Below are positions 1,412-29,400 of a DNA stretch of 46,653 nucleotides, piece after piece (within the stretch, counting starts at the first letter, position 1; every line of letters starts with the position of its first letter). The notes under the pieces were generated by a model. It was not told where the DNA came from. It saw nothing but the letters and a program-made list of their open reading frames with translations, and did not search any database. Source of the DNA: a virus; the IMG/VR virus record IMGVR_UViG_3300007735_000744, positions 1-46,653 of that record, one strand, 5' to 3'. The translations under genes and the position numbers were made by a program.

Positions 1412-1419
1412 TATTTATA
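1412..1419 (-). promoter_or_regulatory. T4-type late promoter box TATAAATA
   Basis: TATTTATA on the plus strand reads TATAAATA on the minus strand, the full T4 late -10 consensus. It ends 29 nt before the ATG of the core protein at 1382 and overlaps the 3' end of gene 20. No -35 is expected for sigma-gp55-type promoters. The spacing to the start codon is similar to the other boxes in this window. Confidence 0.65.
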
Positions 1420-4372
1420 TCTCCCCACCCTTAGGAAGTTCTGCAATTTTTCCATCTGCTTTTGTTGCATTTCCCTGACTATCAATATTCGGTTCCATAA
1501 CTGGTTTACCTAAATCCATTCCAGGTGTAGGTGGTGCATTTGGATCCATTGGAAGTCCAGTCTGTGGATCAATTGGTTGATTTGGGTCGGGAATAATACC
1601 ATCCTTGATTTCTCTCTTCATAATTTGGTCTTGCTCAATAATCTCTTGATCAGTTTGACGAAGAATTTTTCTACGAAGATAATCTTGTGAAAAATATTTG
1701 CCAACATATGGTTCAGCAACCTGAATCATATTTAATCTTTCATTTAGAAGTTCAGCATCCTTGAGTTCAGAGAAGTGATTATCATACAGAAAGTCAAATT
1801 GAATATGCTCATCCATTATTGACCAATCTTCTGGAGTAATAATGTTCTTAAGAATTAATTGAGTTCTCAACATATCACTAAACATCGCCGAGAATCTCTT
1901 TCTCAAACGAGCAACAAATTTGGTAAACTTAACTTCGTCACGTAGAATTTCTGATGAACGTCCAAGATTAAATCCACCTTCACCATCCATTCTTGATGGA
2001 GGTACATTCAATGAACGATAAAGTTTTTTCTTGAAATATTCAATGTCGGTGATTTCTCCAAGATTTTGTCCACCCGGAAGAGTGGTGATTTCTGTTCCTC
2101 TACCACCTTCTCTACGAGGTAACCAAAAGTCCTCAAGCATAGCCATAAACTTTTTATCATCACGAATTTCTCCGGTTGCAGAATCATATACTTGCTTGTT
2201 ACGATACCTCATCATCACATCACGAAGATATTGCTCTGCCTTTACCTTTGGGAGATTACCAACATCAATGTAGAAAATTCTTCTTTCAGGAGCCCTTGAG
2301 TTGTGTACTATAATGCCATTAGCGACAAAGTTGTGCTTCTCATGAGAAACTTCAATATCATAAACTTCTTCAACTTCTTTAATTTCAATTTTTTGAATCT
2401 TTTCAAATTTTGGAAGTTCATATTCACTCAGATATAATTCCCAACACTCAGATTCTGGCATAGTTCTTTCAACTTGTTCATAACCAACAATTCTAGTTTT
2501 TGATGGGCGAATTCTATGTCTAATATGTCCGGAACAAAGACCGATAGAAGTCCAAATTTCTTTGATGTCTTCAATGAGATTTTTATTTGCAAGAGAGATT
2601 TCGCATGAGAATCCACTTACAAGATCTTTATAATGACCATCGGCATCTAATAGTCCAAGAATTAGTTCTTTCTTGATATTATCTGGTGAAGTAAAAACCC
2701 AATCGGGAATTCTTTTATTTTTTGATCCATTAACAAAACCCAATTTACCCAATAGTTCTGCAGCAAGTGTATTTGAAGATGTATAGTTGCTATACTTTCT
2801 CTTTGAGTTTATTCTTATACATTTTCCAAAGAATTTTTCCATTAACTTGGAATAATATAGATTTTGAATTTCATCCTCACCTTCGGCAAAAGTTACACTG
2901 TATCTGCTGACAGATCCATCACCCAAAAGGAATCCAAATAGTCTTGCAAATTCTTCATCAATATAATCTGGAAGATTTAGACTATTTGTGCAGAAACCCG
3001 TATACTTTTCATCAAATTCAATATCATTAAGAATATTAAGTTCTCCTTGCAGTAGAGCAACACTAGAAACTTCTAGTGATTGTGATCCATATAGGAAATT
3101 TCTAATACTACTCTTGTTTATTTTTGTAGTTTCTGAAAGTTCTTGAATTCTATCTTCTTTTCCTTGAATTTTATAAGAAGACCAAACAGAAGTATCCTTT
3201 AGTGTATAAGACTTTTCTCTAACCTCTGGGAATGATGTTAGAATATTTGTTTCTTCTGGTTTGATATAAGTCAGATGATGTCTTTTTGGTTCAAGATCTT
3301 TAATAGGAACATACTTAACATCCTTTGCCACATTATCAAAAACTAAAATTGGATGAGTATCTGTACCAATAACATCGTGATGCTTAGAAGAAACTTTATA
3401 TGTTTGCTTAATACCAGTCATCCACTTGTTAGATACCTGAGTCTCTACAAGTTTATCTACAGTGTTATCATATGTATATACCGTATCACCAACATTAATG
3501 TTTTTGATATATGAATATCCTTTATTTGTCTTTACTCTAGTATCTCCAACAAGGCATAGACGATAAATTACCAAAGAATCTTCAATCATTCTCAATTGAT
3601 TGAGAGACTTGATTGCCTTATGAAGATATGAAAGCGTTGACCCCTTATTTCTATCTACAAGACCGGAAGTGCAATATGCAATGGAATCTTTTGACATCTT
3701 GATTCCTTGACTTGAACCACCAAGAGCTCCAGGTGCAGGAGTTCCTGTTGGATAAGTCATCTTTGGATTGTAAACAAAGTATTCTTCAATTTCAGGAAAT
3801 TCAAAATCCATTGGATTATCAACAGTCCTGGATGAAATCTTATACTTATCGCTTTCTTTTTTCTTTGCCTGTCGTACATAACGCATTTTCATTGCGTCAA
3901 TGTATCTAAATTCTTGAATACCTGCTTCTGGATTTTTGAGATCAATTACCTTATGATAATAGAGTCTTCCATCAATATACCAATTTCTATAAATTTCGTG
4001 AGATTTTTTATCAAAATCTAGAAGTTCTAAAATATACTTAAACTCTTCTCTAATTTTCTTCTTAATACCGTCACTTGCATTTAGATTTGAGAGTTCAATT
4101 TGTACAGGAGAATCGTTAGCATCACTCACGATTGCTTCATTTACAATATCTTCAATTGCACTATCACATTCTGGATGAAGTGCCATTTCCCGATATCTTT
4201 TGATTAAATCAAATTCAGTCCTATAGACTCCTTCAATATCAACATACGAACCAAAAAACCCACTACTCAAATAATGATCTACGGAATCCTCACTATTGGG
4301 GGGAACCGGAGATAGAGTAGTGGGTGACAGTGCTTCAGTATCCTCAATAGAGAATCCAAACAATTTTGCCAT
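1415..4372 (-). CDS. gp20: Portal vertex protein gp20 with in-frame intein
   Basis: 985 aa from ATG 4372; the upstream TTG at 4378 is a poorer start. Gp20 forms the dodecameric portal at the head vertex through which DNA is packaged and ejected and onto which the neck docks. The exteins total about 566 aa (T4 gp20 is 524): residues 1-272 with the T4-like YREMALHPECDSAIEDIVNE region, and residues 692-985 beginning SRAPERRIFYIDVGNLPK, the most conserved gp20 motif. Between them sit 419 residues of intein, inserted exactly at VIYRL^SRAPERR. The C-terminus is Pro/Gln-rich (DPNQPIDPQTGLPMDPNAPP), common in cyanophage portals. It is followed by the core protein gene and preceded by the tube gene. 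Without splicing the portal fold would be interrupted. Confidence 0.96.
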   Translation of the reverse strand: MAKLFGFSIEDTEALSPTTLSPVPPNSEDSVDHYLSSGFFGSYVDIEGVYRTEFDLIKRYREMALHPECDSAIEDIVNEAIVSDANDSPVQIELSNLNASDGIKKKIREEFKYILELLDFDKKSHEIYRNWYIDGRLYYHKVIDLKNPEAGIQEFRYIDAMKMRYVRQAKKKESDKYKISSRTVDNPMDFEFPEIEEYFVYNPKMTYPTGTPAPGALGGSSQGIKMSKDSIAYCTSGLVDRNKGSTLSYLHKAIKSLNQLRMIEDSLVIYRLCLVGDTRVKTNKGYSYIKNINVGDTVYTYDNTVDKLVETQVSNKWMTGIKQTYKVSSKHHDVIGTDTHPILVFDNVAKDVKYVPIKDLEPKRHHLTYIKPEETNILTSFPEVREKSYTLKDTSVWSSYKIQGKEDRIQELSETTKINKSSIRNFLYGSQSLEVSSVALLQGELNILNDIEFDEKYTGFCTNSLNLPDYIDEEFARLFGFLLGDGSVSRYSVTFAEGEDEIQNLYYSKLMEKFFGKCIRINSKRKYSNYTSSNTLAAELLGKLGFVNGSKNKRIPDWVFTSPDNIKKELILGLLDADGHYKDLVSGFSCEISLANKNLIEDIKEIWTSIGLCSGHIRHRIRPSKTRIVGYEQVERTMPESECWELYLSEYELPKFEKIQKIEIKEVEEVYDIEVSHEKHNFVANGIIVHNSRAPERRIFYIDVGNLPKVKAEQYLRDVMMRYRNKQVYDSATGEIRDDKKFMAMLEDFWLPRREGGRGTEITTLPGGQNLGEITDIEYFKKKLYRSLNVPPSRMDGEGGFNLGRSSEILRDEVKFTKFVARLRKRFSAMFSDMLRTQLILKNIITPEDWSIMDEHIQFDFLYDNHFSELKDAELLNERLNMIQVAEPYVGKYFSQDYLRRKILRQTDQEIIEQDQIMKREIKDGIIPDPNQPIDPQTGLPMDPNAPPTPGMDLGKPVMEPNIDSQGNATKADGKIAELPKGGEI
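2300..3556 (-). other. Intein in gp20 (class 1, LAGLIDADG homing endonuclease)
   Basis: 419 aa (residues 273-691 of the protein from ATG 4372). Block A is CLVGDTRVKTNKGYSYIKNI, starting with the Cys1 nucleophile. Block B is GTDTHPIL, with the TxxH motif. The two LAGLIDADG helices are LFGFLLGDGSV and LILGLLDADGHY, each retaining its acidic residue, so the homing endonuclease may be active. Block F is VYDIEVSHEKHNFV. Block G is GIIVHN followed by Ser+1 of the C-extein. All splice-critical residues (Cys1, block-B His, penultimate His, terminal Asn, Ser+1) are present, so self-splicing is predicted. Removal restores an uninterrupted gp20 sequence across RL^SRAPERR. Confidence 0.95.
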
Positions 4373-4432
4373 AATCAAATTCTAATTTATTTCTACTATT
4401 TAGCAGTTAAATTATGGGGTAGTATAAGTATC

Positions 4433-7292: not shown

Positions 7293-8495
7293 TTACATAT
7301 AATTCCACATGAAAGATCTATCTCCATACTCATCAACGTGCCATGTATCACCGTCAGCATCAGTAAAAGTACTCTCACCAAATCCATCCGAAATGAATCC
7401 AAAAGGAGACATATCTTGTTCTATTTGATTTTTTTGTTCTTCATATAATCTCTTTCTCACATCCTGATCTGTAAGTTCTTTAAAATAATCCTGTGCAACT
7501 AACCAGGAATAGATTACCAAACACATCGCTAAGTCATCATTACAACCTTCTTCCGCCTCAAATGAATTGTGTTTTTGAATAAATGTCGTTAGTTCACACA
7601 TAATTTCATAATCATTGAAGATGAGTTTATTCTCCTCAATCATTGTTTTCAGATTTAGACATCCAATTTTTTTAACAGTTTTGGACATCTTCACGCCAAG
7701 TTGAGTTTTCTTTCCTGAAAATCCTTGCCCAACAATTTGTCCTGCCCTACCTCTCATAGAACACATAAGAAGATTTTGATACTCCAAATCATATTGAAGA
7801 ATACTTGCTACTTGATCACCAACATCATTTACTTCACATAGGATATATGAATTGTTATAGTTTCTCGCAACGTCATAAATTACGCTAGGAAATAGCATAG
7901 GTTTAATTTCATTATTTCGATACTTTGCCACAACCTTATGTGGAAAACTAGTAATGTCAATAACAGTAAATGCAGAGTAATCGTTTCCTACACCTCTAGC
8001 AACGTCTACAGTGATTAGATAGTCGTTATCGTCAACTACATCTACGTGTACGTCCAAACCCCCGCTGCTTGTCTTAGGAGCATCATAGACGAGGGATCTG
8101 AGTTTTGATGGTGCAATTAAAGTATCAACTGAACCCAGAAACTCACAGTTATGTGATATTATACTGTTTGAATAATATAAGTGTTCGGTACCTGAATTTA
8201 CAATATCATATAATTCTATTTTTTCCTCTACTACTGTAGATTCTACTAAAAAACATCCTCCATCTTTAGTATATACTTCAGTATATACATCCAAATCCTT
8301 TGCTTTTATAATTCCTTCTATTGTTGATAATGGATGATCTAAAGAACACTTTAATTCTTTTTCATTAGTAAATTTTAAATGAATATACCTATCTTTTATT
8401 ATTTTGTTTATTCCATAAAAAGATACTAAACCTTCTGGTGAAAGTATTTTATGTCCTTTTTTATTTAATACTACACTTTCAGGAATTGTATGCAT
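7293..8495 (-). CDS. gp17: Terminase large subunit gp17, C-terminal part: C-intein plus nuclease domain
   Basis: 400 aa from ATG 8495, the first good start in frame. Residues 1-116 are a C-intein. Residues 117-400 are the gp17 RNase H-like nuclease domain, beginning CEFLGSVDTLIAPSKLRSL, which continues exactly where the upstream ORF's extein stops. Nuclease acidic motifs are visible: ITVDVARGVGNDYSAF, SYILCEVNDVGDQ and EEGCNDDLAMCLVIYSWLV, matching the three catalytic acids of T4 gp17. The nuclease cuts concatemeric DNA to start and end head filling. On its own this piece lacks the ATPase, so function should require trans-splicing to the product of the ORF at 8599-10464. Combined exteins total about 548 aa, a normal cyanophage gp17 length. 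Confidence 0.93.
   Translation of the reverse strand: MHTIPESVVLNKKGHKILSPEGLVSFYGINKIIKDRYIHLKFTNEKELKCSLDHPLSTIEGIIKAKDLDVYTEVYTKDGGCFLVESTVVEEKIELYDIVNSGTEHLYYSNSIISHNCEFLGSVDTLIAPSKLRSLVYDAPKTSSGGLDVHVDVVDDNDYLITVDVARGVGNDYSAFTVIDITSFPHKVVAKYRNNEIKPMLFPSVIYDVARNYNNSYILCEVNDVGDQVASILQYDLEYQNLLMCSMRGRAGQIVGQGFSGKKTQLGVKMSKTVKKIGCLNLKTMIEENKLIFNDYEIMCELTTFIQKHNSFEAEEGCNDDLAMCLVIYSWLVAQDYFKELTDQDVRKRLYEEQKNQIEQDMSPFGFISDGFGESTFTDADGDTWHVDEYGDRSFMWNYM
8148..8495 (-). other. C-terminal half of split intein (IntC, 116 aa)
   Basis: Residues 1-116 of the downstream gp17 ORF. Features are a KILSPEGLVSFYGI strand region, a block-B-like segment CSLDHPLST with the key His, block F IELYDIVNSGTEHLYY and block G SIISHN followed by Cys+1 (CEFLG). 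No endonuclease motif is present, so this is a minimal splicing domain. The size and the KILSP...G...F.GI and LYD...ESLY/EHLY pattern resemble my memory of the AceL-TerL IntC (about 104 aa), which also precedes CEFLG in a metagenomic terminase. It complements the 28-aa N-intein that ends the upstream ORF. Confidence 0.9.
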
Positions 8496-8598
8496 CTGTT
8501 TAGAAAATTTTTTTATTTAATTTATCTTTTTATTTCAAATAACAAATATTCATCATTATCATTTATACAATATTTCTAGTTGTTCCTTTGTAATATTT
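8496..8598 (-). other. 103-bp gap between the two terminase ORFs (split-intein junction)
   Basis: This non-coding, AT-rich stretch separates the stop of the ATPase/N-intein ORF from the ATG of the C-intein ORF. An AAAGGAACA sequence lies just after the stop, but no ribosome-binding site is close to the downstream ATG. There are stops in frame upstream of that ATG, so the two ORFs cannot be joined by a single frameshift. No endonuclease remnant is recognisable. Confidence 0.7.
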
Positions 8599-10464
8599 TT
8601 ATTGTTCGTTTTTGAGTTGCTCATACAAGTCTCCTATACATACATCCGCTGTGCCATCATTTATAAGAGTTGTATAGTCAAGACTTTCAAATTCAACTTT
8701 GAATTGTTGTTCACTCGTGTTAGCAATTGTTTCTGCCTTCCATTTTGAATCCCTACCAGGAACCTCACTCCAATGAACGTCTGTGAATACGTATCCATTT
8801 TTACCTTTTTCTGCATCGTGCCACATACGGTAGAAGTGATTCATACCGTGTGGTGTAGATACAACAATAACTTTGGTATTTTTACCAGCAGTAATCGTTG
8901 GATATACTGAGGCAAAAAACGATTCTGCAATATGATTTGGAACGAATGCAAATTCATCCAAAAATAAAATATTGAATGACATACCACGAACCGCAGAAGC
9001 AGAAGTAGAAGCAGCCAAGATTTTACTTCCATTTTCAAGTTCCAGAGAACCTTTATTCCAAGAGATAATACCTTGTTGCATCCATTTTGGAAGATTTTCA
9101 TATGCAGTTTGAAGACGATCTAAAAGTTCTCTTGCCGTTGCTGCCTTGTTTGCAAGAATGCCAATATTTACATTATCATTAAAGACTGCATAATGAAGCA
9201 AATAAGAAACGACAGTGGTAGAGTTATGTGTTGGGATGAAAGTATTACCACATAAGAATAGGTGATCCTCACTATCTACTTGAATACAAGCAACTGGAAC
9301 GCTATCAACTTTTTCTATCTTATGAATATAATGTCTATTTTCTTGTATTCTAGTTGTTCTTTGAGTATCGATATTATTTAATTTTCTTGGAAGATTAAAT
9401 ACCTTCTCTTTAGTTGTAAATGATACTGTATGGTAATAATTGCCTCTTATCTTTTTTTGTCTTATATTTGATTTGATTCCTAATGTTGCCAATAGTTCTA
9501 CAACTTGTAATATGAGATCATAATTTTTTTGATAAAATTCAAATGACCTGGTATTTTTTGTTACTGACCCATCAGTATCCATTAACCCGCGAAGTAGTTC
9601 TAATCTATCTTCATAAGAAGATCTTAAATAATTTTGTGGAATATGTTTGTTCTTTAATAAATTTTGTAACTTTAATTTTAATCTTAAATCTTTAACTTTA
9701 AATCTTATACAATTTCCATCATCTCTTTCATTCTCAACATCTATTTTTGTTTTATAATATTCATAGTCATCTTTATGTGCGATTATTCTTCCATCAGAAG
9801 AATATCCATCTCCCAACCAAACTCCAAGAAGATATGGATCAATATCCAATGAATTTTTGATGAAATTAATTGGTTTAGATTTATTGACATATAAAGATCC
9901 CTGAACTCCTTTCCCTCTCTTGTTTTGTACTTTTGATTCGTATTTATCATATATTTCTTGTGACGTTATAACCCTTTTCTCAGTTCTCCAATAAGAACTA
10001 TCAACTTCCCATAAATGATTTGAGTCTGCAACGATTTCTTCGCCATTATCAAAGTATAATTTATAGCAATCATGATTATGCATTGCTTCAGTTTTCATAG
10101 TTACCGAAACACTATCTCCAGAAGGAGAAAGAATAACATCTCCAACTTTTAAATCTCCCATAGTTGTCCAACCAGTCGGTGTTGGGATTGGAGTATTTAA
10201 TGCTAATGCCTTACCAGACTGTCTGGGCATCTTGCAGACGTTAAATCTGTGATCATGGAAATTTTTGATAAGTTTTTCTTGAAACTTGTACATCTTAAAA
10301 GGCACAAGACCATGATCAAGTGAAACAATTTTTATATAGTTTTTCGCAAAATATACAGGATCTTTTTTACATTTTATAAATTGCTCAATTTGATCCTTGG
10401 TAAACTCTATTGGTGTATTTGCCTTTTTTAATAGAGGATTACCCAGATATTGATCGTTACTCAT
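8599..10464 (-). CDS. gp17: Terminase large subunit gp17, N-terminal part: ATPase with P-loop intein and N-intein tail
   Basis: 621 aa. Exteins are residues 1-85 and 415-593; inteins are 86-414 and 594-621. Gp17 is the ATP-driven packaging motor docked on the portal. The Walker A motif is reconstituted only after splicing: PRQSGK (80-85) joined to STT (415-417), like T4 SRQLGKTT. Walker B is NILFLDEFAF (498-507) and the coupling motif is VVSTPHG (534-540). The extein ends SEQQFKVEFE, after which the N-intein begins and the ORF stops at TAA 8599. The nuclease half is encoded by the next ORF. The start follows the preceding 62-aa gene by 3 bp. Neither ATPase nor full-length terminase is predicted to be functional before one cis- and one trans-splicing reaction. 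Confidence 0.94.
   Translation of the reverse strand: MSNDQYLGNPLLKKANTPIEFTKDQIEQFIKCKKDPVYFAKNYIKIVSLDHGLVPFKMYKFQEKLIKNFHDHRFNVCKMPRQSGKALALNTPIPTPTGWTTMGDLKVGDVILSPSGDSVSVTMKTEAMHNHDCYKLYFDNGEEIVADSNHLWEVDSSYWRTEKRVITSQEIYDKYESKVQNKRGKGVQGSLYVNKSKPINFIKNSLDIDPYLLGVWLGDGYSSDGRIIAHKDDYEYYKTKIDVENERDDGNCIRFKVKDLRLKLKLQNLLKNKHIPQNYLRSSYEDRLELLRGLMDTDGSVTKNTRSFEFYQKNYDLILQVVELLATLGIKSNIRQKKIRGNYYHTVSFTTKEKVFNLPRKLNNIDTQRTTRIQENRHYIHKIEKVDSVPVACIQVDSEDHLFLCGNTFIPTHNSTTVVSYLLHYAVFNDNVNIGILANKAATARELLDRLQTAYENLPKWMQQGIISWNKGSLELENGSKILAASTSASAVRGMSFNILFLDEFAFVPNHIAESFFASVYPTITAGKNTKVIVVSTPHGMNHFYRMWHDAEKGKNGYVFTDVHWSEVPGRDSKWKAETIANTSEQQFKVEFESLDYTTLINDGTADVCIGDLYEQLKNEQ
8602..8685 (-). other. 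N-terminal half of split intein (IntN, 28 aa)
   Basis: The last 28 residues of the ATPase ORF start SLDYTTLINDGTADVCIG and end with a stop. This is an intein block A, comparable with CLSYDTEIL-type starts, joined to a short ...IGDLYEQLK tail. It directly follows the extein FKVEFE, which in contiguous gp17 proteins is followed by CEFLGS, the sequence that starts the C-extein in the next ORF. The first residue is Ser rather than the usual Cys. Very short N-inteins of 25-37 aa characterise the atypically split phage inteins such as AceL-TerL. Confidence 0.88.
9223..10209 (-). other. Class 3-type intein in the terminase P-loop with LAGLIDADG endonuclease
   Basis: 329 aa inserted between Lys and Ser of the Walker A GK^ST. 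It begins ALALNTPIPTPTGWTTMGDL with Ala1 instead of Cys or Ser. It carries the Trp-Cys-Thr triad that defines class 3 inteins: Trp at position 12 of block B (ADSNHLWEV, residue 152), Cys at position 4 of block F (VACIQVDSEDHLFL, residue 393) and Thr at position 5 of block G (FIPTHN, residue 412). It ends His-Asn before Ser+1. The endonuclease helices are YLLGVWLGDGYS and LLRGLMDTDGSV. Class 3 splicing starts with attack by the block F Cys. All expected residues are present, so splicing is predicted. Confidence 0.92.
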
Positions 10465-17168: not shown

Positions 17169-17385
17169 ATTTGGATGATATTAATTTTGTTAATATATTT
17201 TTTATTTCATCAATATCATTTTTAATCTTTATTACATCTTCTTCTATTTGTTTTGATTTTCCAATTTCTTTCATTTTATCTTCCTTTTCTTTTAGATATT
17301 TTTGATAATCAAGACTTGAGCAATTAATAATTGCATTAGTTTTTTCGTCCCTAAACAAATAATTATGATCTTTTACTGGTATCAT
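17167..17385 (-). CDS. Small coiled-coil hypothetical protein
   Basis: 72 aa (MIPVKDHNYLFRDEKTNAII...). The first 30 residues form a short folded segment ending NCSSLDYQKYL. The rest is strongly charged and heptad-like (KEKEDKMKEIGKSKQIEEDVIKIKNDIDEIKNILTKLISS), predicting a coiled coil. Its ATG overlaps the stop of the 2494-aa gene as ATGA, so it is translationally coupled. Similar short proteins with a YLFRD...AIIN...Y..Y start occur next to large structural genes in cyanophages as I recall. It could be a trimerisation or assembly helper for a fibre, but that is inference. Confidence 0.75.
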   Translation of the reverse strand: MIPVKDHNYLFRDEKTNAIINCSSLDYQKYLKEKEDKMKEIGKSKQIEEDVIKIKNDIDEIKNILTKLISSK

Positions 17386-20300
17386 GATTTAGATGCAATA
17401 ACTCTTAAATCTTTAATTCTTGGATATAATGCTTGATTTGTTCCAGACATTAATATTTTAATTTGAAAACCATTAAATAATGGAAGATTATCTGCACTAA
17501 ATTCATAACTTCCAAAATCTGAAACATTCGTGGAAGGAAGTACAAATTTATCAGATCTTCCACTGTTATTTTTTGGATCGATCACAAAATCATTATTATC
17601 TAAATTATCATATCCTGGAAATAAATCAAAAAGCTGTTGTTGGGATGCAGAATCTGATCTTAGTAATCTATACATAACTCTTATGTCACTTGTGTTGTCT
17701 CTATAAGCATCAAATAAAACTTTTAGGCTGTCTGATGATTGTTTTAGATTGATTGTTTTAGAAACATAGATTGCAGCATGAGGATCATCAAACAAGCTAT
17801 TTACTCTTGAATCGGTAGAATAATTTGCGACTGGTTTGTTCAATCTAGTCATCACAGTAATCACATTAACTCTATCAAGATCGATCATTGGTGATACTTT
17901 TGGGTCACCAGTGGAAAATTGAAGTTCAAGTGTAAATGATTTACTTCCAGGATAACTAGAAAGATATTCTAATTCATTTACTCTTGATGCAATAATTCTT
18001 GGAGAAGATAATACATAATCAGATGTTAAAGAAATATCTTCAAAACCTTGATCAACGTATGATATTGCATTTCCACCAACACTATTTCCGGAAAATGTCC
18101 TAATTTTGCAACTTATTGATGTCGTAGAAGGCATTAATGTTTGGATATTTGGTCTTATTATATTAAAGGAAATATTTTGAGTTGCTTTTGGTCCTTTAAA
18201 ATTTGAAGTGGTAGGAAGAATGGATTGGTATGATCCTCCAGATTTTGATTCATTAAAATATAAAGATGGATATCCGCCAGGGTTTCCATTGCTTCTATTT
18301 AATCCATCTGCACTTGGATCTAATACAATTGTATATTCATCTAAATCTATAGGATCTGAACCAGAAATGCTATGTGTTTTATTGATTCTTTTTAAAGAAA
18401 CACCATTTAATTCATATTTTGATACAATTTCATTTGCAACATACGAACTAGATATTGGTCCTCTTATTATACCTGTTAAGGTCTTTGTGGATGTATTTAT
18501 ACCAGTATATCCAATAACTTCTTCTTTAATTAAAATGTATCCTGTATTTGCAGCACCAACAGGATAATTTTCAAAATTATTAAAGATACTAACATCACTC
18601 AATACCATCGCATCAGTTGAGGATGAATTGTAATCAGATGCCAATCTTACAGGAGAAATGTCAGATTCAATACCACTTAATGTGACTTTATTTTGGAATG
18701 AGTACATTCCGTGATTATTATGATTTACTTTGAATTTTAATCCAGTTGAAATTGAATTTGATGATGTTGCATTTCCATTGACTATTGTTGTAATTCCCAC
18801 TGTCGTAGTATATTGAATATATTTTGTAGTATCACTAGTATCAAGTGTTCCTTGAATATTTCCAATTATTAAAGCATTCACTGAAGTAATAATTCCAGCG
18901 TTATTTGGAATTGATAATAGAAGATTTTTTCCCAACCCTCCAGTATTTGTTGAAGCAATACTAAGTACATCTCCAATTCCATAACCAATACCAGGAACAG
19001 TAACTGTTGCTGCAATTGCAACACCTCCACTCACTGCTAAATTTGCTTTTGCTCCTATACCATTTCCGGTTATAGTAGTCAAATCGACATTTGAATATGT
19101 TATTGGTCCATTTGTGTATCCAACTCCGGGATTTGTAATTGTTAATGTTCCTGTTGATCCAGTAGAAATTCCACCCAATACACTTATTAAGTTTGAAGAA
19201 AAATTGGAATTATTTTTTTGTGTGATTTTGGTTCCTTTTATTAATAGATTTTGGTCTGCACTACTAATGCTTGTTCCAATTCCAACCAATGTACTATTTG
19301 CAAACATTTGAATTGGATTTTGTCTTAAAGAGACAATTTGTTTATTTCCTACATCCAAAATTGGATTATAAAATCTTATATTTGAAGGACTTGTTGTAAA
19401 ATTTGCACGATATAAAGTAAATTTCAAATCTTCATATTGACTTGGATCCCAAGTAGCTCCATTTTGTGATTTAAATAAAGATCCCAAAAGTGGTTGTTGT
19501 GAAACAATAACTCTTTCTGATTCTGGTTTAAGAACAGTAGATATATCTGGTTCACCCATTCTTGAAATCCAAACAGTATATTGATCGGATGCAGAAAGCA
19601 AAACAAGTGAATATGCATTTGCAGTTTCGAGATATACTGGTGACGGAAAAGTAAAGGTTGTTGGTATTGATCCATCTTCTGAAATTAATATTTCTTTTGG
19701 TTCCAATACAACTTCCCCAAATGGAAGAATTGTTTGTGTTGGTAAACCAGTTGACATCGTTCTTACTTGAAGAGTTACTGGTATATTATTTGTAGATTTT
19801 GATTTAAAGAATATATCACATTTTGTAATATAAACACCATTCGAATCAGCAACTTCAAATGATTGTGCTAGTGGGTCTACCCATCTAGTATTTGTAACTG
19901 TTCTATTTGTAAATGATGTATCTGCAACAATTCTTGTATCTGTTTCTGTAGTTTCTCGGTTATCTGTTTTTACATTTCTTGAAATGTCTGCATTTCTAAT
20001 TCTTAATGTCGTTGCTTCAACATTATCCAAAGTACCACTAGATGTAAAATTAGCTTCAGCAGAACTATCAGTAAATCCAGATATTGTACTATTTACATCA
20101 CTTGTTGTTAATTTGAGTGTTTTTGTTCCAGTTCTAAATGATGGTGTTGATGGAATTGTTGGATCGGGAATAAACAATGACGCTATAAGTGTACCAGAAT
20201 TATCACTAATTAATCTTAAATCTTTTACGTTACATATTGCACCACTAGTTTGTCCAACAAGACGCATTCCGGACACGATTTGTCCATAAAAACCAGAAGA

Positions 20301-23300
20301 AGATTGAATTTCTAAACTTGCAGTATCAATATTTAAAATTGAAGTTGTTGATGAATATTGAGAAGAAAGTGAATTTGATGGGTTATATGGATCTACTGTA
20401 TATGTTTGTGTTGGTAAATTATACGGACCATATTTGTGATTTTGAGATGCTACCCTAAATCTTATTGTTTTTGATCCAAGAGAACCAACAACAACTTCAC
20501 CAACCGAAAATGATCCATTCGTCATAGTAACTTCTAAAAGTTTAGGAGTTACATACGATGTCATATTGATATTATCAAAAAATGCATAAATTCTAGTATT
20601 TGGTTTTAGTCTTCTTGCAATAATTTCAATATTTCTTGATCTCATAAATGACAAAACTTCCCTAGATACAACTCTATCTCCTAGATTTGTTGTATCAAAT
20701 CTTTGAGAAACACCATATTGAATACCCTGTCTACTTTGATTAGTAGTAGTCGTAGTTGTTTCATTTGAGAAATTGACAAAACTATCTTGGAATGTTTGTA
20801 TTGTTGTTTCTGCTCTTGGTGAACCAGTCCACGGAGTTAATGATACATCTTGACCAATTTGAGATGATCCATTTTGAATACTAGCAATTTGTTGCCTTCC
20901 TGCCCAGTGTGTACCGGTCCAATTTGTTTCCCAAGATCCCCAATCAGTTGGTGACAACCCAGTGTTTGTGTCAACACCCAATTGTTGGATAAAAGAATCA
21001 TAACTACCCTCTATATCTGCTGTTCTTTGTGAATTTCTTGTTTCTATCCACGTATCTGATGATGGATTTAATTCAATTGCACCAATCCAATTAATAACAT
21101 TAAATGGATTTATATTTTCAATTCTTGTGGCAAATTTATTTTTTACATATTCTACATCTGAATAATTTAGACATACAATATCTCCAACTCTTTTAATATT
21201 TGGAGACCCCAAATCACTCACAAATCTCAAATCCGCATCTGCATTGGATTGAGTACCAATACCAATTACAGAATCTGAACCGATTAGAAGGTCAATACTT
21301 GTTGTGTACGGTTGTGGATTCAATTCTCCAACAGCACTATCTACACTTGCTCTATAAACTGGATTGGAAATATCACCACCGTTATATGATTTAAAATTAT
21401 CTACAAAAAAACCACATTTAAATCTATCAAGTTGTGTTGTTTTATCTCTGATTGTAAGATTTTGTGTATCACTTTCAAGAAGAGATAGCGAAGTGTAGTA
21501 CTCCACATTTGACAATCTTTGATCCAAACTTGAAATGTCTTTCATTCTGTATCTTTTATGAGATACTAAATTGATTTTAACACTAGACACATTGTGCAAA
21601 TATGCAGGCAAATAAACCGTACCAATTTCCAAAGAAGAATCTAAATTATTTGGAATTTGTGGTGCCAAAGAAGGAACACCCTTATTGACAATAAAAGAAC
21701 CATCTTTATCTAAAAAGATTTTGTCAATTCTTGACAAATAATAATCATAAGAAAGATTAATATTTTTAGATTTTGCAAAAATATTAGTTGAGGAACTTGT
21801 GGTTGAATTAAATATTCGTGAAGAGAACTCAAAAGGTGATGTTGAAGAACCACTAAATGGTGTCACTCTTGGTCTACAATCAATAATATCAGAAAGTCTA
21901 ATACCATCGACCGACTTTAGTTTTCCATATATGTCTTTATCATAAGAATTTACTCCAACAAAATCTCCAGTATCGGAAGAATTTATTGTAAAATAATTAT
22001 AAATGATTTTAATTTTTTTTATCGGAGCTGAAAATTGTGGTTTTCTAATGATTTTAGAAAAATCCAAATAATCCGACCTTTGTCCAGAATCAAAAATATA
22101 ATTATTTTTAATATTTTTATCTCCGGGAAATGCAAACAACACATTTGCTTGCATATTAGATTCTTGGAAACTTATAGATTCGTTTGCGGCAAATATATTT
22201 TCATTTTGATAAACAATATCTACTTGATTTGTTCCGTTTGAAGAAATTAAAACAGCAACTGCACCACTTATTTGTCCAATAATTAATTCCCCCTTTACGG
22301 AATTTAAAATATTTGAAGATAAATTTGTTAACTGAATAAATGGTAGTGATGGGTCGCCAGTAGTTGATGATTCAATAATTCCAACAATTTCGGATACGTC
22401 TGAAATATTTAATGAAATTTCTTTATCTTGTACTCGTGTTCCGTATATTTGATCATATATTAATCCATCATTTAATGAGGTTGATCCAATTCCAGACCCC
22501 TGAAGTGATGATTTATTAACAATTATAGAAGAACATCGATTATGTATTTTTTTCTTCGTTTTTGCATTTATTTTTTTAAATGTAGCAGTTAAAACTGCAT
22601 TTCCATTTTGACTGATATTCTGTAATGTTATAGTTCTTCCACTAGGAACAAGTTTTTGGTCAGTTAGTGATTCTATTACTCCACTACTAAATGCTAAATT
22701 GTAATCTTCTTCGTCAAATGGTTCAAGAGTTAAATTTGTGTCACTTTCTAGTAATTGTGACAATCCATTGCCACTAATTGTTACGTTATAACTTTTTCTG
22801 ATTACTATATCAGATCCATTTAAATCTAAATTTGATATGTTTGATTTATTTAATTTTGTATAAAGACCAATATTTTTTATATTATTTAAAATTTCTAGAG
22901 TAACTTTTTTAAAATCATTTGTAGTTATTGTTGAAGACGGTAAACTTCCACTACAAATACCAGAAACAGAAGGAAGTGATTTTAATTCAATCACCTTTGC
23001 AGTGGTACTTATTCTGTGTACTTTATTATATGTTGGTACAATTTCACCTTGTTTGGTGTATGAAACTACATCTCCAGTATTGATTCCAACATAAAAATTT
23101 GAATTTGAATTTGTTACTGAACTTATTCCTCCAGATGCAACAGAAATTGTAAATTGTGATCCTGAAGGAGACAAAAGAATTGAATTGGAAAGTAGTGGAT
23201 CTGCTGTAAATGTTACTCCATTTCCGACTATTTGATGAACATCTGAAAAATTAAAATCACGAGACGAAGTAATAGTTCGGCTATTATCTATCCCATTAAT

Positions 23301-24866
23301 TTCAATTTGCTCATCTTTTACAAAAGAACCAGAAACTTGATATAATGTTAGTTCGTTTGAGGAAGATACATTACCGACAAGATATCCTGTCGCTCCACTA
23401 TTTTTTCCTCGAATATGTGCAGGAACTGTTTGAGATATAGTTGCATTTAAATTTAAAATTGTATAAGTTTGAACATCATACAAAGATATTTCATATTGTG
23501 TTGTTGCATTTGTATATTCGGCATTTTTTAATTTTAAATCATATATTCTTGCAACACCTATTTTTAAATCAGATGCAATACCAACAGATACCGTTCTTCC
23601 TTGGTGTAAATTTACTAATGAAGACACTCCAAAACCAACAGGAACTGATCCTGAAACATTGTTAACAATAATTTGCCTTCCTAAATTGAAAGGTATTGCT
23701 TGATTGTAATCATTAGAAGTAGATCTTGGTTTTTCTATATCAATTATTGTATTATTGATTGTTTCTACTTCATATCCTCTCACATATGCCTTTCCGGGAC
23801 CAACTGATAGACACATCAAATTGTCAGAGACTGTATTTCCTTGACTTGTTTTTTGATTTTTTAAATATATTCCATTATTTCCAATTTGATCATTTAAACA
23901 TTCCCTTTCCACAATATCAAATGGTTTTACATAATAATCTCCTGATTCATCATATGTTCTTCTTGCAAGTTCATCTCTAATTAAATTATAATTTGTTGTT
24001 TTTACAAATTTTTGTAAAATTCCATTTTCTAATCTAAGAAGTTCAATAAAATTTTCATCATTAAATTCATCAATTGATTTTTTAATCAATGAAGTAGATA
24101 TTTTTAATCTATCTGCGCCAGGAGCTGCATAATTTGAAAACCCTTGAGCATTATCAAATAAATCTTTATATTCATCTGATGCAACAACAATATCTTCGTC
24201 AATCAATAAACCAACTCTATAAGATGGTTTATTTGTATAATAATCTAGTATAACTGTTTCTGAATTTACTTTTATGAAAAAACCTCTAATAAAATATATT
24301 CCTTCTGCAATTTTTGCGGCAGAACCCACTGCGGTAGAATTTGATATAATCGTTGTGGCAAAAGATGTGCCATTTCTAATTGTTGATAAAGAATATGTAA
24401 TATCTTCCAACGCTATTAAATTTTCTCCATCAACAAAAGTTGCAGTTGAAAAATTAGTATCACTTGAACTTTGATATTTTATGTATAAAGTATTGTGTGT
24501 TACATTTGTATCATTGTTTGATACATAATTTTCAATTTTTGCCTTTACTCCACTAATTTCTCCTTGAATTAATTTTCCTACAAGATTTTCTAAATATAAA
24601 GAAATCGGAAGTCCTAAATGTGTTTCGTCAATTTGGACACAAGCATATTCTGAATCATAAGCAATTTGGCCAGGAATTACCATTGCTCCTTCTTTGAAGA
24701 AATGATTTCCAAATTTTTCTATTTGATTCTGAAGTATTGTTTGTAATGTTGTTAATTCTCTTGCCTGAACTGGTGAACCCGGTTTAAATAAAACTTTTTG
24801 ATAATTTTTTGATTCTTCAAAATCATCAAAATAAGGAGATACGTTTAAATTAGTTTTTTGGGGCAT
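17382..24866 (-). CDS. Giant DUF4815-type baseplate/tail structural protein (2494 aa)
   Basis: 2494 aa. The N-terminus MPQKTNLNVSPYFDDFEESK, then VLFKPGSPVQARELTTLQTI and QIEKFGNHFFKEGAMVIPG, is the signature of the DUF4815 family of phage virion proteins. The body is a long series of beta-rich, Ser/Thr/Gly/Asn-rich segments. Near residues 1360-1420 are repeated Trp-containing motifs (TDWGSWETNWTGTHWAGRQQ). Near 1630-1780 are Ser/Thr-rich strands followed by a jelly-roll-like domain (WVDPLAQSFEV...DIFFKSKSTNNIPVTLQVR) typical of adhesins. GxGY repeats occur near residues 1910-1990. It follows gp8 and precedes the small fibre genes, occupying the place of T4 gp9-gp12, so it is probably a baseplate-attached fibre or adhesin. 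No enzymatic motif is seen. Confidence 0.82.
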   Translation of the reverse strand: MPQKTNLNVSPYFDDFEESKNYQKVLFKPGSPVQARELTTLQTILQNQIEKFGNHFFKEGAMVIPGQIAYDSEYACVQIDETHLGLPISLYLENLVGKLIQGEISGVKAKIENYVSNNDTNVTHNTLYIKYQSSSDTNFSTATFVDGENLIALEDITYSLSTIRNGTSFATTIISNSTAVGSAAKIAEGIYFIRGFFIKVNSETVILDYYTNKPSYRVGLLIDEDIVVASDEYKDLFDNAQGFSNYAAPGADRLKISTSLIKKSIDEFNDENFIELLRLENGILQKFVKTTNYNLIRDELARRTYDESGDYYVKPFDIVERECLNDQIGNNGIYLKNQKTSQGNTVSDNLMCLSVGPGKAYVRGYEVETINNTIIDIEKPRSTSNDYNQAIPFNLGRQIIVNNVSGSVPVGFGVSSLVNLHQGRTVSVGIASDLKIGVARIYDLKLKNAEYTNATTQYEISLYDVQTYTILNLNATISQTVPAHIRGKNSGATGYLVGNVSSSNELTLYQVSGSFVKDEQIEINGIDNSRTITSSRDFNFSDVHQIVGNGVTFTADPLLSNSILLSPSGSQFTISVASGGISSVTNSNSNFYVGINTGDVVSYTKQGEIVPTYNKVHRISTTAKVIELKSLPSVSGICSGSLPSSTITTNDFKKVTLEILNNIKNIGLYTKLNKSNISNLDLNGSDIVIRKSYNVTISGNGLSQLLESDTNLTLEPFDEEDYNLAFSSGVIESLTDQKLVPSGRTITLQNISQNGNAVLTATFKKINAKTKKKIHNRCSSIIVNKSSLQGSGIGSTSLNDGLIYDQIYGTRVQDKEISLNISDVSEIVGIIESSTTGDPSLPFIQLTNLSSNILNSVKGELIIGQISGAVAVLISSNGTNQVDIVYQNENIFAANESISFQESNMQANVLFAFPGDKNIKNNYIFDSGQRSDYLDFSKIIRKPQFSAPIKKIKIIYNYFTINSSDTGDFVGVNSYDKDIYGKLKSVDGIRLSDIIDCRPRVTPFSGSSTSPFEFSSRIFNSTTSSSTNIFAKSKNINLSYDYYLSRIDKIFLDKDGSFIVNKGVPSLAPQIPNNLDSSLEIGTVYLPAYLHNVSSVKINLVSHKRYRMKDISSLDQRLSNVEYYTSLSLLESDTQNLTIRDKTTQLDRFKCGFFVDNFKSYNGGDISNPVYRASVDSAVGELNPQPYTTSIDLLIGSDSVIGIGTQSNADADLRFVSDLGSPNIKRVGDIVCLNYSDVEYVKNKFATRIENINPFNVINWIGAIELNPSSDTWIETRNSQRTADIEGSYDSFIQQLGVDTNTGLSPTDWGSWETNWTGTHWAGRQQIASIQNGSSQIGQDVSLTPWTGSPRAETTIQTFQDSFVNFSNETTTTTTNQSRQGIQYGVSQRFDTTNLGDRVVSREVLSFMRSRNIEIIARRLKPNTRIYAFFDNINMTSYVTPKLLEVTMTNGSFSVGEVVVGSLGSKTIRFRVASQNHKYGPYNLPTQTYTVDPYNPSNSLSSQYSSTTSILNIDTASLEIQSSSGFYGQIVSGMRLVGQTSGAICNVKDLRLISDNSGTLIASLFIPDPTIPSTPSFRTGTKTLKLTTSDVNSTISGFTDSSAEANFTSSGTLDNVEATTLRIRNADISRNVKTDNRETTETDTRIVADTSFTNRTVTNTRWVDPLAQSFEVADSNGVYITKCDIFFKSKSTNNIPVTLQVRTMSTGLPTQTILPFGEVVLEPKEILISEDGSIPTTFTFPSPVYLETANAYSLVLLSASDQYTVWISRMGEPDISTVLKPESERVIVSQQPLLGSLFKSQNGATWDPSQYEDLKFTLYRANFTTSPSNIRFYNPILDVGNKQIVSLRQNPIQMFANSTLVGIGTSISSADQNLLIKGTKITQKNNSNFSSNLISVLGGISTGSTGTLTITNPGVGYTNGPITYSNVDLTTITGNGIGAKANLAVSGGVAIAATVTVPGIGYGIGDVLSIASTNTGGLGKNLLLSIPNNAGIITSVNALIIGNIQGTLDTSDTTKYIQYTTTVGITTIVNGNATSSNSISTGLKFKVNHNNHGMYSFQNKVTLSGIESDISPVRLASDYNSSSTDAMVLSDVSIFNNFENYPVGAANTGYILIKEEVIGYTGINTSTKTLTGIIRGPISSSYVANEIVSKYELNGVSLKRINKTHSISGSDPIDLDEYTIVLDPSADGLNRSNGNPGGYPSLYFNESKSGGSYQSILPTTSNFKGPKATQNISFNIIRPNIQTLMPSTTSISCKIRTFSGNSVGGNAISYVDQGFEDISLTSDYVLSSPRIIASRVNELEYLSSYPGSKSFTLELQFSTGDPKVSPMIDLDRVNVITVMTRLNKPVANYSTDSRVNSLFDDPHAAIYVSKTINLKQSSDSLKVLFDAYRDNTSDIRVMYRLLRSDSASQQQLFDLFPGYDNLDNNDFVIDPKNNSGRSDKFVLPSTNVSDFGSYEFSADNLPLFNGFQIKILMSGTNQALYPRIKDLRVIASKS

Positions 24867-26470: not shown

Positions 26471-26478
26471 TATTTATT
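26471..26478 (-). promoter_or_regulatory. Possible late promoter box AATAAATA before gene 8
   Basis: AATAAATA on the minus strand spans the end of the giant gp7-like gene, 15 nt before the gp8 ATG. It lies in a run of AAATAAATAAATATAAA, so the exact box is ambiguous and the leader would be unusually short. Confidence 0.3.
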
Positions 26479-29400
26479 TATTTACCTTTAAACAAACCTC
26501 TTGTTCTGGTAACTTCTGGTGCAGAAGATAAACCAACTAATCCATTATTTGTATTTATTGTAAAGTTTTTTGGAATACCAATTCCCCTATTTTGATAATC
26601 GTAAATATTACCCCAACTATATTTTCCATAAAAACCATTTGGTCTATTTAATGGATCTGCATTAACTATAATTTGATTTGCATGATTGGGACTAGGTAAA
26701 AATTTACAAAATACAGTAACAATACCAACCCCAGAAGATTGCACGTTGTCTGCATAATAAACTCCATCAATAAATGTATTTGCCGTTCCGACATTTGTTA
26801 TTGTATTGCCCGCAGTCGTAATTCCAGTCAAAGCATGTCCACATTGCACATTGCTATCGTAAATAATAAAGTAATCTCCTGTTGATATTCCACTATATGA
26901 TATTCCAAAACTGTCAAGAGCAGAATAACCAATTCCTAAAGTTGTATTATCATAAGATTCTGTTTTTAATGTAAAAATTAGTTGTGGTAGAGTTGACCCA
27001 TACCCCAAACTTGTATCCACCCCAACAATTAATCCATGATCTCCTTTTGATTTTATGGAAACTATTTGCTCGGTCAATGCTTTGTCTGGTTGTATTAATA
27101 TTTTTGGTGGATTATTTTGATTATAACCAAACCCAGGATTTGTAATTGAAATTGAAGTTACAATACCAGATGTAGCATTTGATGTCGCTGTAGCAAAATT
27201 ATAAACAGCAGTAGAATATACTGAAGTTGCTCCAGCACCAATTAAAACATAACCATCATTATTTGGAACATATAAAATATCATTTATAATATTTGATTGA
27301 TTTGTCGATCTATATGTCCAATTTATCAAATCAAAAGAATAATACAATAATCCATTTGAGTTTAATAATGTGTATAATTTATATGATGTATTATAATTAA
27401 TGTTAACAAAATTTCCATTAATATTTGGTGTTATTTGTTCCCAAGTAACACCAAAAAATGACCTAAATATAGAATTTGAATTACCCACTACAACAAATTT
27501 TACCCCATCCCAAATAATTTTATTTAAATGATTTGATGTAATTACATCTGTATCCCAAAATTCTCCACTTGATGATGTCGAAACCGTGCCATCGTCACCT
27601 ACTGCAACTAGTTTTGATGCTCCATATGCTACAGATTTAAAATTACTAGAAGTATTTGATGCGACTTTAGTAAATGCAGTCGATCCAACACCAACTGCAG
27701 AAAAAATTGCCCCAACGTATCCGACAGAAATCCACTTACCAATATCTGAAAAATAATTAACATTAGTTAAAGATGAAATATAAGAACTTTCAGATCTTGT
27801 AATAATACCAAATTGTGAAAATTCTTCATATTTTTTCATTTCTGTCCAAGAAGATATTGTCGTTCCATAACCAATTGCTTTAATTATTTTTCCATTATTG
27901 CCAACAGCAATATAGGTATTGGTCGATGCAAAAGAAACTGAATTGAATGATACAGTTCCCGCAAAACCTACATTCGAAAATGAACTATAATTTTTCGCAT
28001 CTGTTGTAATTGCAACAACACCACTTTGGCCCACAGAAACTATTGGATTTCCATTAGTAATTGAAAGCAGGGAGGTATTAGTAGAAAGACCAGAAGATAA
28101 TGTCCAGTTTAAAATTGGATCTTTTAATTGCACAGAAATTGATGAAATAGCAACATTTGGTGATGTTGTGTACGCATATCCAATTCCACCTGTTGAAATT
28201 GCAATTGAAGAAATTGTACTAGAAATAGAAACTATTGCTGTTGCTATCGCAGGATTTGTGTCCCTAGTTTCAACAATTAAAATATTGGCATCTTCTTCTG
28301 GTAATGAGTCCAATGTATTAAATAATGGAAATGCACTGCTTACATATATTGAAGTATCTTCGATATTTACATTTTTAATTATTCTTGTTGTTGGTCTAAT
28401 TGTTGGTATTAAACTTGGTCTTGCTTTGGATACTAAAGATCCATTAATAATTCTATCTTGTTTTTGTTTAGACCATTTAAGAGGTCTTTGTTTATTTGTA
28501 TTCGTATTAATACCTACACTGTCATAATTATAAGTGTCAAGTTGATCACTTGAAACAATTTTTTTAACAATTCGGTCAAACTGTTCGATATCTAAATTGT
28601 CATAAATGTTTTCTCCAATTTGAACACCATCACCATCTTTAATTGTTTTTACAGGAGTAATGGTTTCAACATCTCGAACAGATCCTTTAAAGAATAGAAC
28701 ACTACATTTTGAACCAGGTTTTGGTGGTTCTTTGAAGAATATCCTACTTCCTAAAACAGTATATGATTCATTTGGTATTTGTAGTATATCATTTAAATAT
28801 ATGAATAAGTTATTTTCCAATTCTATATCAGAACCTGGATTTTTCTTTAAATCTATAACATCAGTAACACCACTTACGGTTTGTGTTAATGTAAATTTGG
28901 TTCTTGATCCATTAAAATATTCAGAAATATCATCAAATGATATAAATTGTCCAACAAAAAATCCACTAAATTTATCTGTTGACGTTTCATTTATTGTAAT
29001 TCTAAATTCACTAAATGATGCTCCTATGTTTGGATTTGTGGTCAAACCCACAACAGATAACACATCTCCAACTTTATATCCAATTCCTGGGTCGTCTATA
29101 TTGAACTGAATAATACTTGAACCATTTCCAACTTGAACTGAAACCTTTGCCCCTATTCCACTTCCACTAGATCCTCCTGTGTAAGCAACGCCCAGATTGC
29201 TGTAAGGTAATGGCAAACTTATTACTGCCACTGGCAATGATGTGGAAGTATATCCAATACCTCCATTTACAATAGACAATGAGGTAATTGTTCCTCCAGC
29301 ACCAACAATCGCAGAAATTGAAGCACCAGATCCGACAGTCGATGCAATACTTATACTCGGAGACGTTCTATACCCACTCCCAGCGCCTTTCAGAGTGATT

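What the first reader, a model, noticed from the sequence alone, without database searches (positions are those of the whole stretch)
7293..10464. Terminase large subunit is split in two by a trans-splicing intein with a 28-aa N-half
The ATPase ORF ends FKVEFE plus a 28-residue intein block A, then stops. 103 bp later a new ORF starts with a 116-residue C-intein ending SHN, then CEFLGSVD and the nuclease domain. Joining the exteins gives a contiguous gp17. By memory, the geometry and the CEFLG insertion site resemble the atypically split AceL-TerL intein from an Antarctic lake metagenome. The 28-aa N-half makes this a natural example, here in its full genomic context, of a packaging motor rebuilt from two polypeptides.
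Basis: partly seen in the sequence, partly recalled or inferred. Interest (0 to 1): 0.92.

Follow-up and report, generated by a model that had tools for sequence, protein, structure and literature searches.

The report
Split-intein terminase with lost homing gene
A cyanophage-like virus makes its DNA-packaging motor as two separate proteins that a split intein should stitch together; the splitting element belongs to a known family, but relatives show that it jumps between phages with a DNA-cutting gene in its gap, and here that gene has been deleted down to a 103-base scar.

Summary
On the minus strand the T4-type terminase (TerL, gp17) is encoded by two ORFs carrying a 28-aa IntN and a 116-aa IntC. 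The spliced product is 548 aa. Each half matches its counterpart in the solved Cat intein (6DSL), the consensus of the atypically split TerL inteins. The catalytic pair is Ser1/Cys+1, so the closest characterised intein is GOS-TerL rather than AceL-TerL (Cys1). This is a new member of a known kind.

1. The 103-bp gap is the scar of a deleted ~1.1-kb homing endonuclease gene (Vsr-like/EDxHD). Relative L001 (IntC 98% identical) still carries the gene there, its ends overlapping the two intein halves.
2. IntC is 96.8% identical at DNA level to L001, while the flanking terminase is only 70-75% identical. The intein therefore moved horizontally.
3. At this one site relatives are unsplit, or carry a GIY-YIG or Vsr-like gene, fused or free-standing, at the split point, or show independent deletion scars. 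The atypical split point appears to be the nuclease-gene insertion point.
4. In several relatives a second split intein at Walker A leaves TerL in three genes.

Splicing and homing activities are inferred, not shown.

The parts
8599..10464 (-). TerL N-terminal ORF (621 aa): ATPase domain interrupted by a cis intein, ending in IntN
   Evidence: ORF; Pfam Terminase_6N 7.3e-16 and LAGLIDADG_3 1.4e-13
9223..10209 (-). 329-aa contiguous class 3 intein with LAGLIDADG domain in Walker A (GK^S); separate from the split intein
   Evidence: phmmer to class 3 Msm DnaBi1 6BS8 1.6e-25, Ala1 and the W and C of the WCT motif aligned; 67.6% identical to the intein at the same place in Synechococcus phage B23
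8602..8685 (-). IntN, 28 aa, Ser1; stop codon 8601..8599
   Evidence: sequence; family profile hits CatN 6DSL_A 5.9e-7
8559..8624 (-). remnant 5' end of the deleted homing endonuclease gene (21 codons MSNSKTNNKNITKEQLEILYK*), overlapping IntN in another frame
   Evidence: frame translation; the intact gene has the corresponding ATG in L001
8496..8598 (-). 103-bp deletion scar of the ~1.1-kb homing endonuclease gene; three collinear blocks (8598-8580, 8575-8510, 8505-8496)
   Evidence: collinear alignment to L001 insert, score 118 against shuffle mean 55, max 73 of 300; alignment
8148..8495 (-). IntC, 116 aa, ends ISHN^C
   Evidence: phmmer 6DSL_B 8.4e-16; AlphaFold pLDDT 93, Foldseek 6DSL 9e-9
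7293..8147 (-). TerL C-extein: CEFLGSVD... RNaseH-fold nuclease domain
   Evidence: Pfam Terminase_6C 9.9e-16; 79.5% identical to intein-less cyanophage TerL

Best explanation
This is an atypically split class 1 intein (Ser1, Asn116 of IntC, Cys+1) at the conserved FE^CEFLG site between the ATPase and nuclease domains of a T4-type terminase. Two precursor proteins are made; the 28-aa IntN docks into the nearly complete IntC Hint fold and trans-splicing ligates ATPase to nuclease (inferred from intact catalytic residues, purifying selection and characterised homologues). The element is the immobile descendant of a mobile three-gene cassette, IntN - homing endonuclease - IntC: the nuclease would cut intein-free terL and repair would copy the whole cassette in, while trans-splicing keeps terL working. 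In this phage the nuclease gene was later deleted to a 103-bp scar, leaving the split intein stranded but still required. Shown: anatomy, family, scar, horizontal transfer. Inferred: splicing, nuclease activity, homing.
For: Both halves match the Cat intein by sequence, and IntC by fold. 31 close relatives in IMG/VR, all followed by the C-extein CEFLG or CSFLG, and preceded by the FE N-extein where the contig reaches it. In L001 (IntC 98% aa) a 381-aa ORF fills the gap, overlapping IntN and IntC in other frames; it has HTH motifs, a DUF559 nuclease domain (3.5e-7) and its profile finds the EDxHD homing endonuclease I-Bth0305I 3R3P (4.8e-4; same match by fold, prob 0.98). The window's gap is three collinear pieces of that gene. 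Window and L001 differ at 11/348 nt in IntC but 253/855 in the C-extein (p = 2e-29; synonymous 9/70 vs 102/172, p = 1e-11). The window sits inside a nuclease-bearing clade. pN/pS in IntC is 0.05 against L001.
Against: No splicing or cleavage assay. The scar is seen in one contig only, without read support. No obvious Shine-Dalgarno before the IntC ATG, so its translation is unexplained. Part of the low IntC divergence could have accrued before the deletion. The nuclease identification rests on a modest PDB profile match plus a Pfam domain.
Confidence: 0.88

Rival explanations
1. The two ORFs are a contiguous intein broken by an assembly or sequencing error, or by a recent inactivating mutation.
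For: The scar is in one contig; reads are not available; a contiguous form exists at this site in distant relatives (L080).
Against: The IntN stop and separate IntC start are shared by dozens of contigs from different metagenomes; the gap has stops in all frames and matches a real intervening gene; other scars recur identically in three datasets each (L044-046, L054/056/058).
Confidence: 0.03
2. The gap is an RNA intron, or is skipped by ribosome bypassing, so TerL is made as one chain.
For: The 103 bp lie between two parts of one protein, and phage terL genes can carry introns (PMC10448857).
Against: Removing the gap alone would still leave 144 aa of intein; no Rfam family matches anywhere in the window; the halves match known trans-splicing partners; relatives have gaps from about 0 to 1.1 kb, filled or not by a nuclease gene.
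Confidence: 0.02
3. The two halves no longer splice and act as a two-subunit terminase held together without ligation.
For: Some phage genes work in pieces after homing endonuclease insertion (ribonucleotide reductase case cited in PMC10448857).
Against: Ser1, block B His54, Asp97, His115, Asn116 and Cys+1 are all kept, and IntC is under purifying selection.
Confidence: 0.07

Closest known systems
GOS-TerL split intein (Bachmann and Mootz 2015)
   Same: Terminase host, short IntN, Ser1/Cys+1, IntC 115 vs 116 aa (geometry as tabulated in PMC11766414); contigs L014-L018 have exactly its 37+115 geometry
   Different: IntN 28 aa instead of 37; IntC 73-74% identical to L014-L018. The GOS-TerL sequence itself could not be compared here
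AceL-TerL and its consensus Cat (PDB 6DSL)
   Same: Atypical split after the first helix, TerL host; both halves match Cat by sequence and IntC by fold
   Different: AceL and Cat use Cys1; IntC about 40% identical to Cat
[quoted passage not shown] 2009); AceL NrdHF with GIY-YIG gene (PMC7891396)
   Same: Free-standing homing endonuclease gene between the two intein-half genes in L001 and others
   Different: AceL NrdHF splits at the canonical endonuclease position (98+48 aa); here the gene sits after only ~28-47 aa of intein, and in the window it is deleted
Aeromonas phage PX29 gp17A/gp17B
   Same: Same TerL site, short IntN, nuclease at the split point; already annotated as N-intein and GIY-YIG plus C-intein
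   Different: GIY-YIG nuclease fused to IntC; Cys1; about 30% IntC identity
VidaL and gp41-1 inteins
   Same: Hint fold
   Different: Sequence matches marginal (E 0.28 and 0.048); VidaL splits earlier, after strand beta2 (PMC13014065)

Membership tests
Atypically split TerL inteins (AceL/GOS/Cat group) | Inserted in phage terminase large subunit between ATPase and nuclease | tested here: met
   Terminase_6N and Terminase_6C flank it
Atypically split TerL inteins (AceL/GOS/Cat group) | Short IntN (15-37 aa, PMC13014065) ending after helix alpha1, long IntC with Hint fold | tested here: met
   28 + 116 aa; IntN family aligns to CatN to its end; Hint fold
Atypically split TerL inteins (AceL/GOS/Cat group) | Homology of both halves to the group | tested here: met
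   6DSL_B 8.4e-16, 6DSL_A 5.9e-7 with family profile
Atypically split TerL inteins (AceL/GOS/Cat group) | Protein trans-splicing activity | not testable with these tools
   Needs co-expression
GOS-TerL type | Ser1 / Cys+1 nucleophiles | tested here: met
   SLDY... and SHN^CEFLG; 33 distinct pairs in the collection share it
GOS-TerL type | Sequence identity to GOS-TerL itself | not tested
   Paper PMC4661395 not held
Fractured-gene mobile split intein | Homing endonuclease gene between the two half-genes | tested here: not met
   Only a 103-bp remnant in the window; intact in L001 and others. A derived form of that arrangement, not a present example
EDxHD/Vsr-like homing endonucleases (for the lost gene) | Vsr-like nuclease domain with conserved acidic and His residues | tested here: met
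   Tested on L001-type genes: DUF559 3.5e-7; 3R3P 4.8e-4; invariant D320, E329, H336 columns. Activity not tested
Class 3 intein (Walker A element) | No Cys/Ser at position 1; W and C of the WCT triplet | tested here: met
   Ala1, W and C aligned with 6BS8; +1 is Ser rather than Thr
VidaL family | Split after beta2, VidaL sequence similarity | tested here: not met
   E 0.28; IntN runs on through helix alpha1 as in CatN

The most novel reading that the evidence does not exclude
The odd 'atypical' split position of TerL inteins is the footprint of homing endonuclease gene invasion: at one terminase site, unrelated nuclease genes (GIY-YIG, Vsr-like) entered an intein after its first helix, created split inteins that spread horizontally as IntN-nuclease-IntC cassettes, and were repeatedly deleted. 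In some relatives two such split inteins interrupt one gene, so the packaging motor must be assembled from three polypeptides by two orthogonal trans-splicing reactions, with Ser1/Cys+1 chemistry the rule at the second site rather than a single oddity.
Probability: 0.7. Interest if true: 0.68.

Novelty: new member of a known kind. Interest (0 to 1): 0.55.

Why it matters
The intein itself adds one more member to a protein-ligation family in use as a tool. The larger value is the comparative series: it gives a testable origin for atypically short split inteins, puts the family in its genomic context, and turns the Ser1/Cys+1 pairing (called the only known case in PMC10189870) into a group of more than 30 distinct pairs. 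If the three-gene terminases in relatives work, they are natural examples of one enzyme assembled by two split inteins, so far met by me only as an engineered scheme.

Tried and rejected
A 28-aa IntN query alone finds nothing in PDB; a family profile was needed. NCBIfam gave only incidental matches. A T4 late-promoter reading (TATAAATA) of the gap was dropped: the exact motif is rarer than chance in the window and absent from the gap. Rfam: nothing, so no known intron. The exact scar sequence was sought in all IMG/VR contigs: none. The AlphaFold model of the L001 nuclease is fair per residue but poorly packed (pTM 0.44), and its fold search gives no E-value below 0.001, only high-probability local matches to 3HRL and 3R3P. 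Kuja and SRB7757 proved to carry inteins at other TerL sites and were left out of the site comparison. Original papers on GOS-TerL, Cat and fractured genes are not held and the AceL-TerL paper was not looked up, so whether they already describe nuclease genes at the atypical split point is unknown.

Full report
WHAT IS THERE. The window is an IMG/VR virus record of 46,653 bases with T4-type structural genes on the minus strand (portal, tail tube, sheath, terminase, sheath stabiliser, head closure, baseplate). The nearest isolates by the TerL nuclease domain are Synechococcus myoviruses such as SynMITS9220M01 and S-SM2, ~79% identical, whose match starts only at the extein: no similar IntC there. 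TerL is in two ORFs. The first (10464..8599) holds the ATPase, a 329-aa contiguous intein in Walker A, and a 28-aa IntN. The second (8495..7293) holds a 116-aa IntC and the nuclease. Removing both inteins gives 548 aa.

WHAT THE SPLIT INTEIN IS. IntC matches CatC (6DSL_B) at 8.4e-16, its predicted fold (pLDDT 93) matches Cat best of all PDB entries, and a profile of 25 IntN sequences finds CatN at 5.9e-7. Cat is the consensus of GOS-TerL and AceL-TerL (PMC11766414). The nucleophiles are Ser1 and Cys+1. [quoted passage not shown] Among the sequences collected here, 33 distinct pairs are Ser1/Cys+1 and 12 are Cys1/Cys+1.

WHAT THE GAP IS. In L001 (IntC 98% identical) the same gap holds a 381-aa ORF whose first codons overlap IntN and whose last codons overlap IntC, in different frames. 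Its family has helix-turn-helix motifs, a cysteine-rich middle and a C-terminal DUF559/MTES_1575 nuclease domain; the profile finds the homing endonuclease I-Bth0305I (3R3P) at 4.8e-4. The window's 103 bp are three collinear pieces of this gene: gap bases 1-19 identical to insert 1-19, 24-89 matching insert 855-918, and 94-103 identical to insert 1086-1095. The chain scores 118 against a maximum of 73 in 300 dinucleotide shuffles. The gene's start survives as a 21-codon remnant overlapping IntN. Other scars look independent: L028 keeps different ends, L026 the 5' part, L044-046 an in-frame deletion, L054/056/058 and L063 others. On the IntC tree nuclease presence or absence needs about 12 changes, and the window is sister to nuclease-bearing L001.

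MOBILITY. Between the window and L001, IntC DNA is 96.8% identical and IntN 89%, but the N-extein is 74.5% and the C-extein 70.4%. The IntC against C-extein contrast has p = 2e-29; on synonymous changes alone p = 1e-11. Among 1,378 pairs of relatives, 267 have IntC more than 0.1 more identical than the extein and 2 the reverse; the pairs are not independent. This points to horizontal transfer of the intein cassette into distinct terminase backgrounds, as homing would produce; homing itself was not observed.

COMPARATIVE SERIES AT ONE SITE. Unsplit intein: L080/L081. A single long TerL-intein frame with a GIY-YIG ORF in another frame exactly at the split point: L070. GIY-YIG fused to IntN: Vibrio phages VP-1 and 1.244.A. 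GIY-YIG fused to IntC: Aeromonas PX29. Free-standing, probably GIY-YIG (SegE-like, E 0.0024, below Pfam's cut-off): Serratia 92A1. Vsr-like fused to IntC: Vibrio Va1. Vsr-like free-standing: L001-L010 and others. None or scar: the window and others. The simplest reading is that the atypical split point is where nuclease genes enter; the direction of each step is inferred.

RELATIVES IN THREE PIECES. In L016, L044-046, L054, L061/062, L090 and L099 the Walker A intein is split too, with Cys1 and a 38-53-aa IntN. L016 has TerL in ORFs 854-1234, 2218-3213 and 3218-4420; the assembled 551 aa share 425 identities with the window's gp17, and the first gap holds its own Vsr-like nuclease gene. In the window the Walker A intein is instead a contiguous class 3 intein.

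LIMITS. No splicing, cleavage or read data. Several original papers were not available, so novelty of the split-point explanation cannot be settled here. IMG/VR loci include near-copies.

Noticed in passing
window 2300-3556, minus strand: The portal protein (gp20, ORF 4378..1415) contains a 419-aa LAGLIDADG intein (Cys1, ends VHN^S), so portal and terminase, both packaging-motor parts, together carry three inteins in this phage.
   Followed up: partly
window 9223-10209, minus strand: Contiguous class 3 intein with LAGLIDADG domain in the TerL Walker A motif, 67.6% identical to that of Synechococcus phage B23.
   Followed up: yes
L016:854-4420: TerL encoded by three genes with two differently placed atypically split inteins (39+115 and 37+115 aa); the first gap holds a 348-aa Vsr-like nuclease gene. 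Similar layout in L044-046, L054, L062, L099.
   Followed up: partly
L070:2063-4714: A single open TerL-intein frame in which a GIY-YIG nuclease ORF (2898-3527) lies in another frame at the split point; possible intermediate between contiguous and split forms.
   Followed up: partly
L044:4968-7277: The TerL nuclease domain appears to carry a further large intein-like insert, which would make three inteins in one terminase.
   Followed up: no
L074:3144-4713: A distant TerL with an IntC-like segment at the Walker B region as well as a split intein at this site, and an intervening ORF with no Pfam match that looks Vsr-like by eye.
   Followed up: no
window 17382-24866 and 26478-38711, minus strand: Two giant ORFs of 2,494 and 4,077 aa in the baseplate region; the first has only a DUF4815 match.
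   Followed up: no
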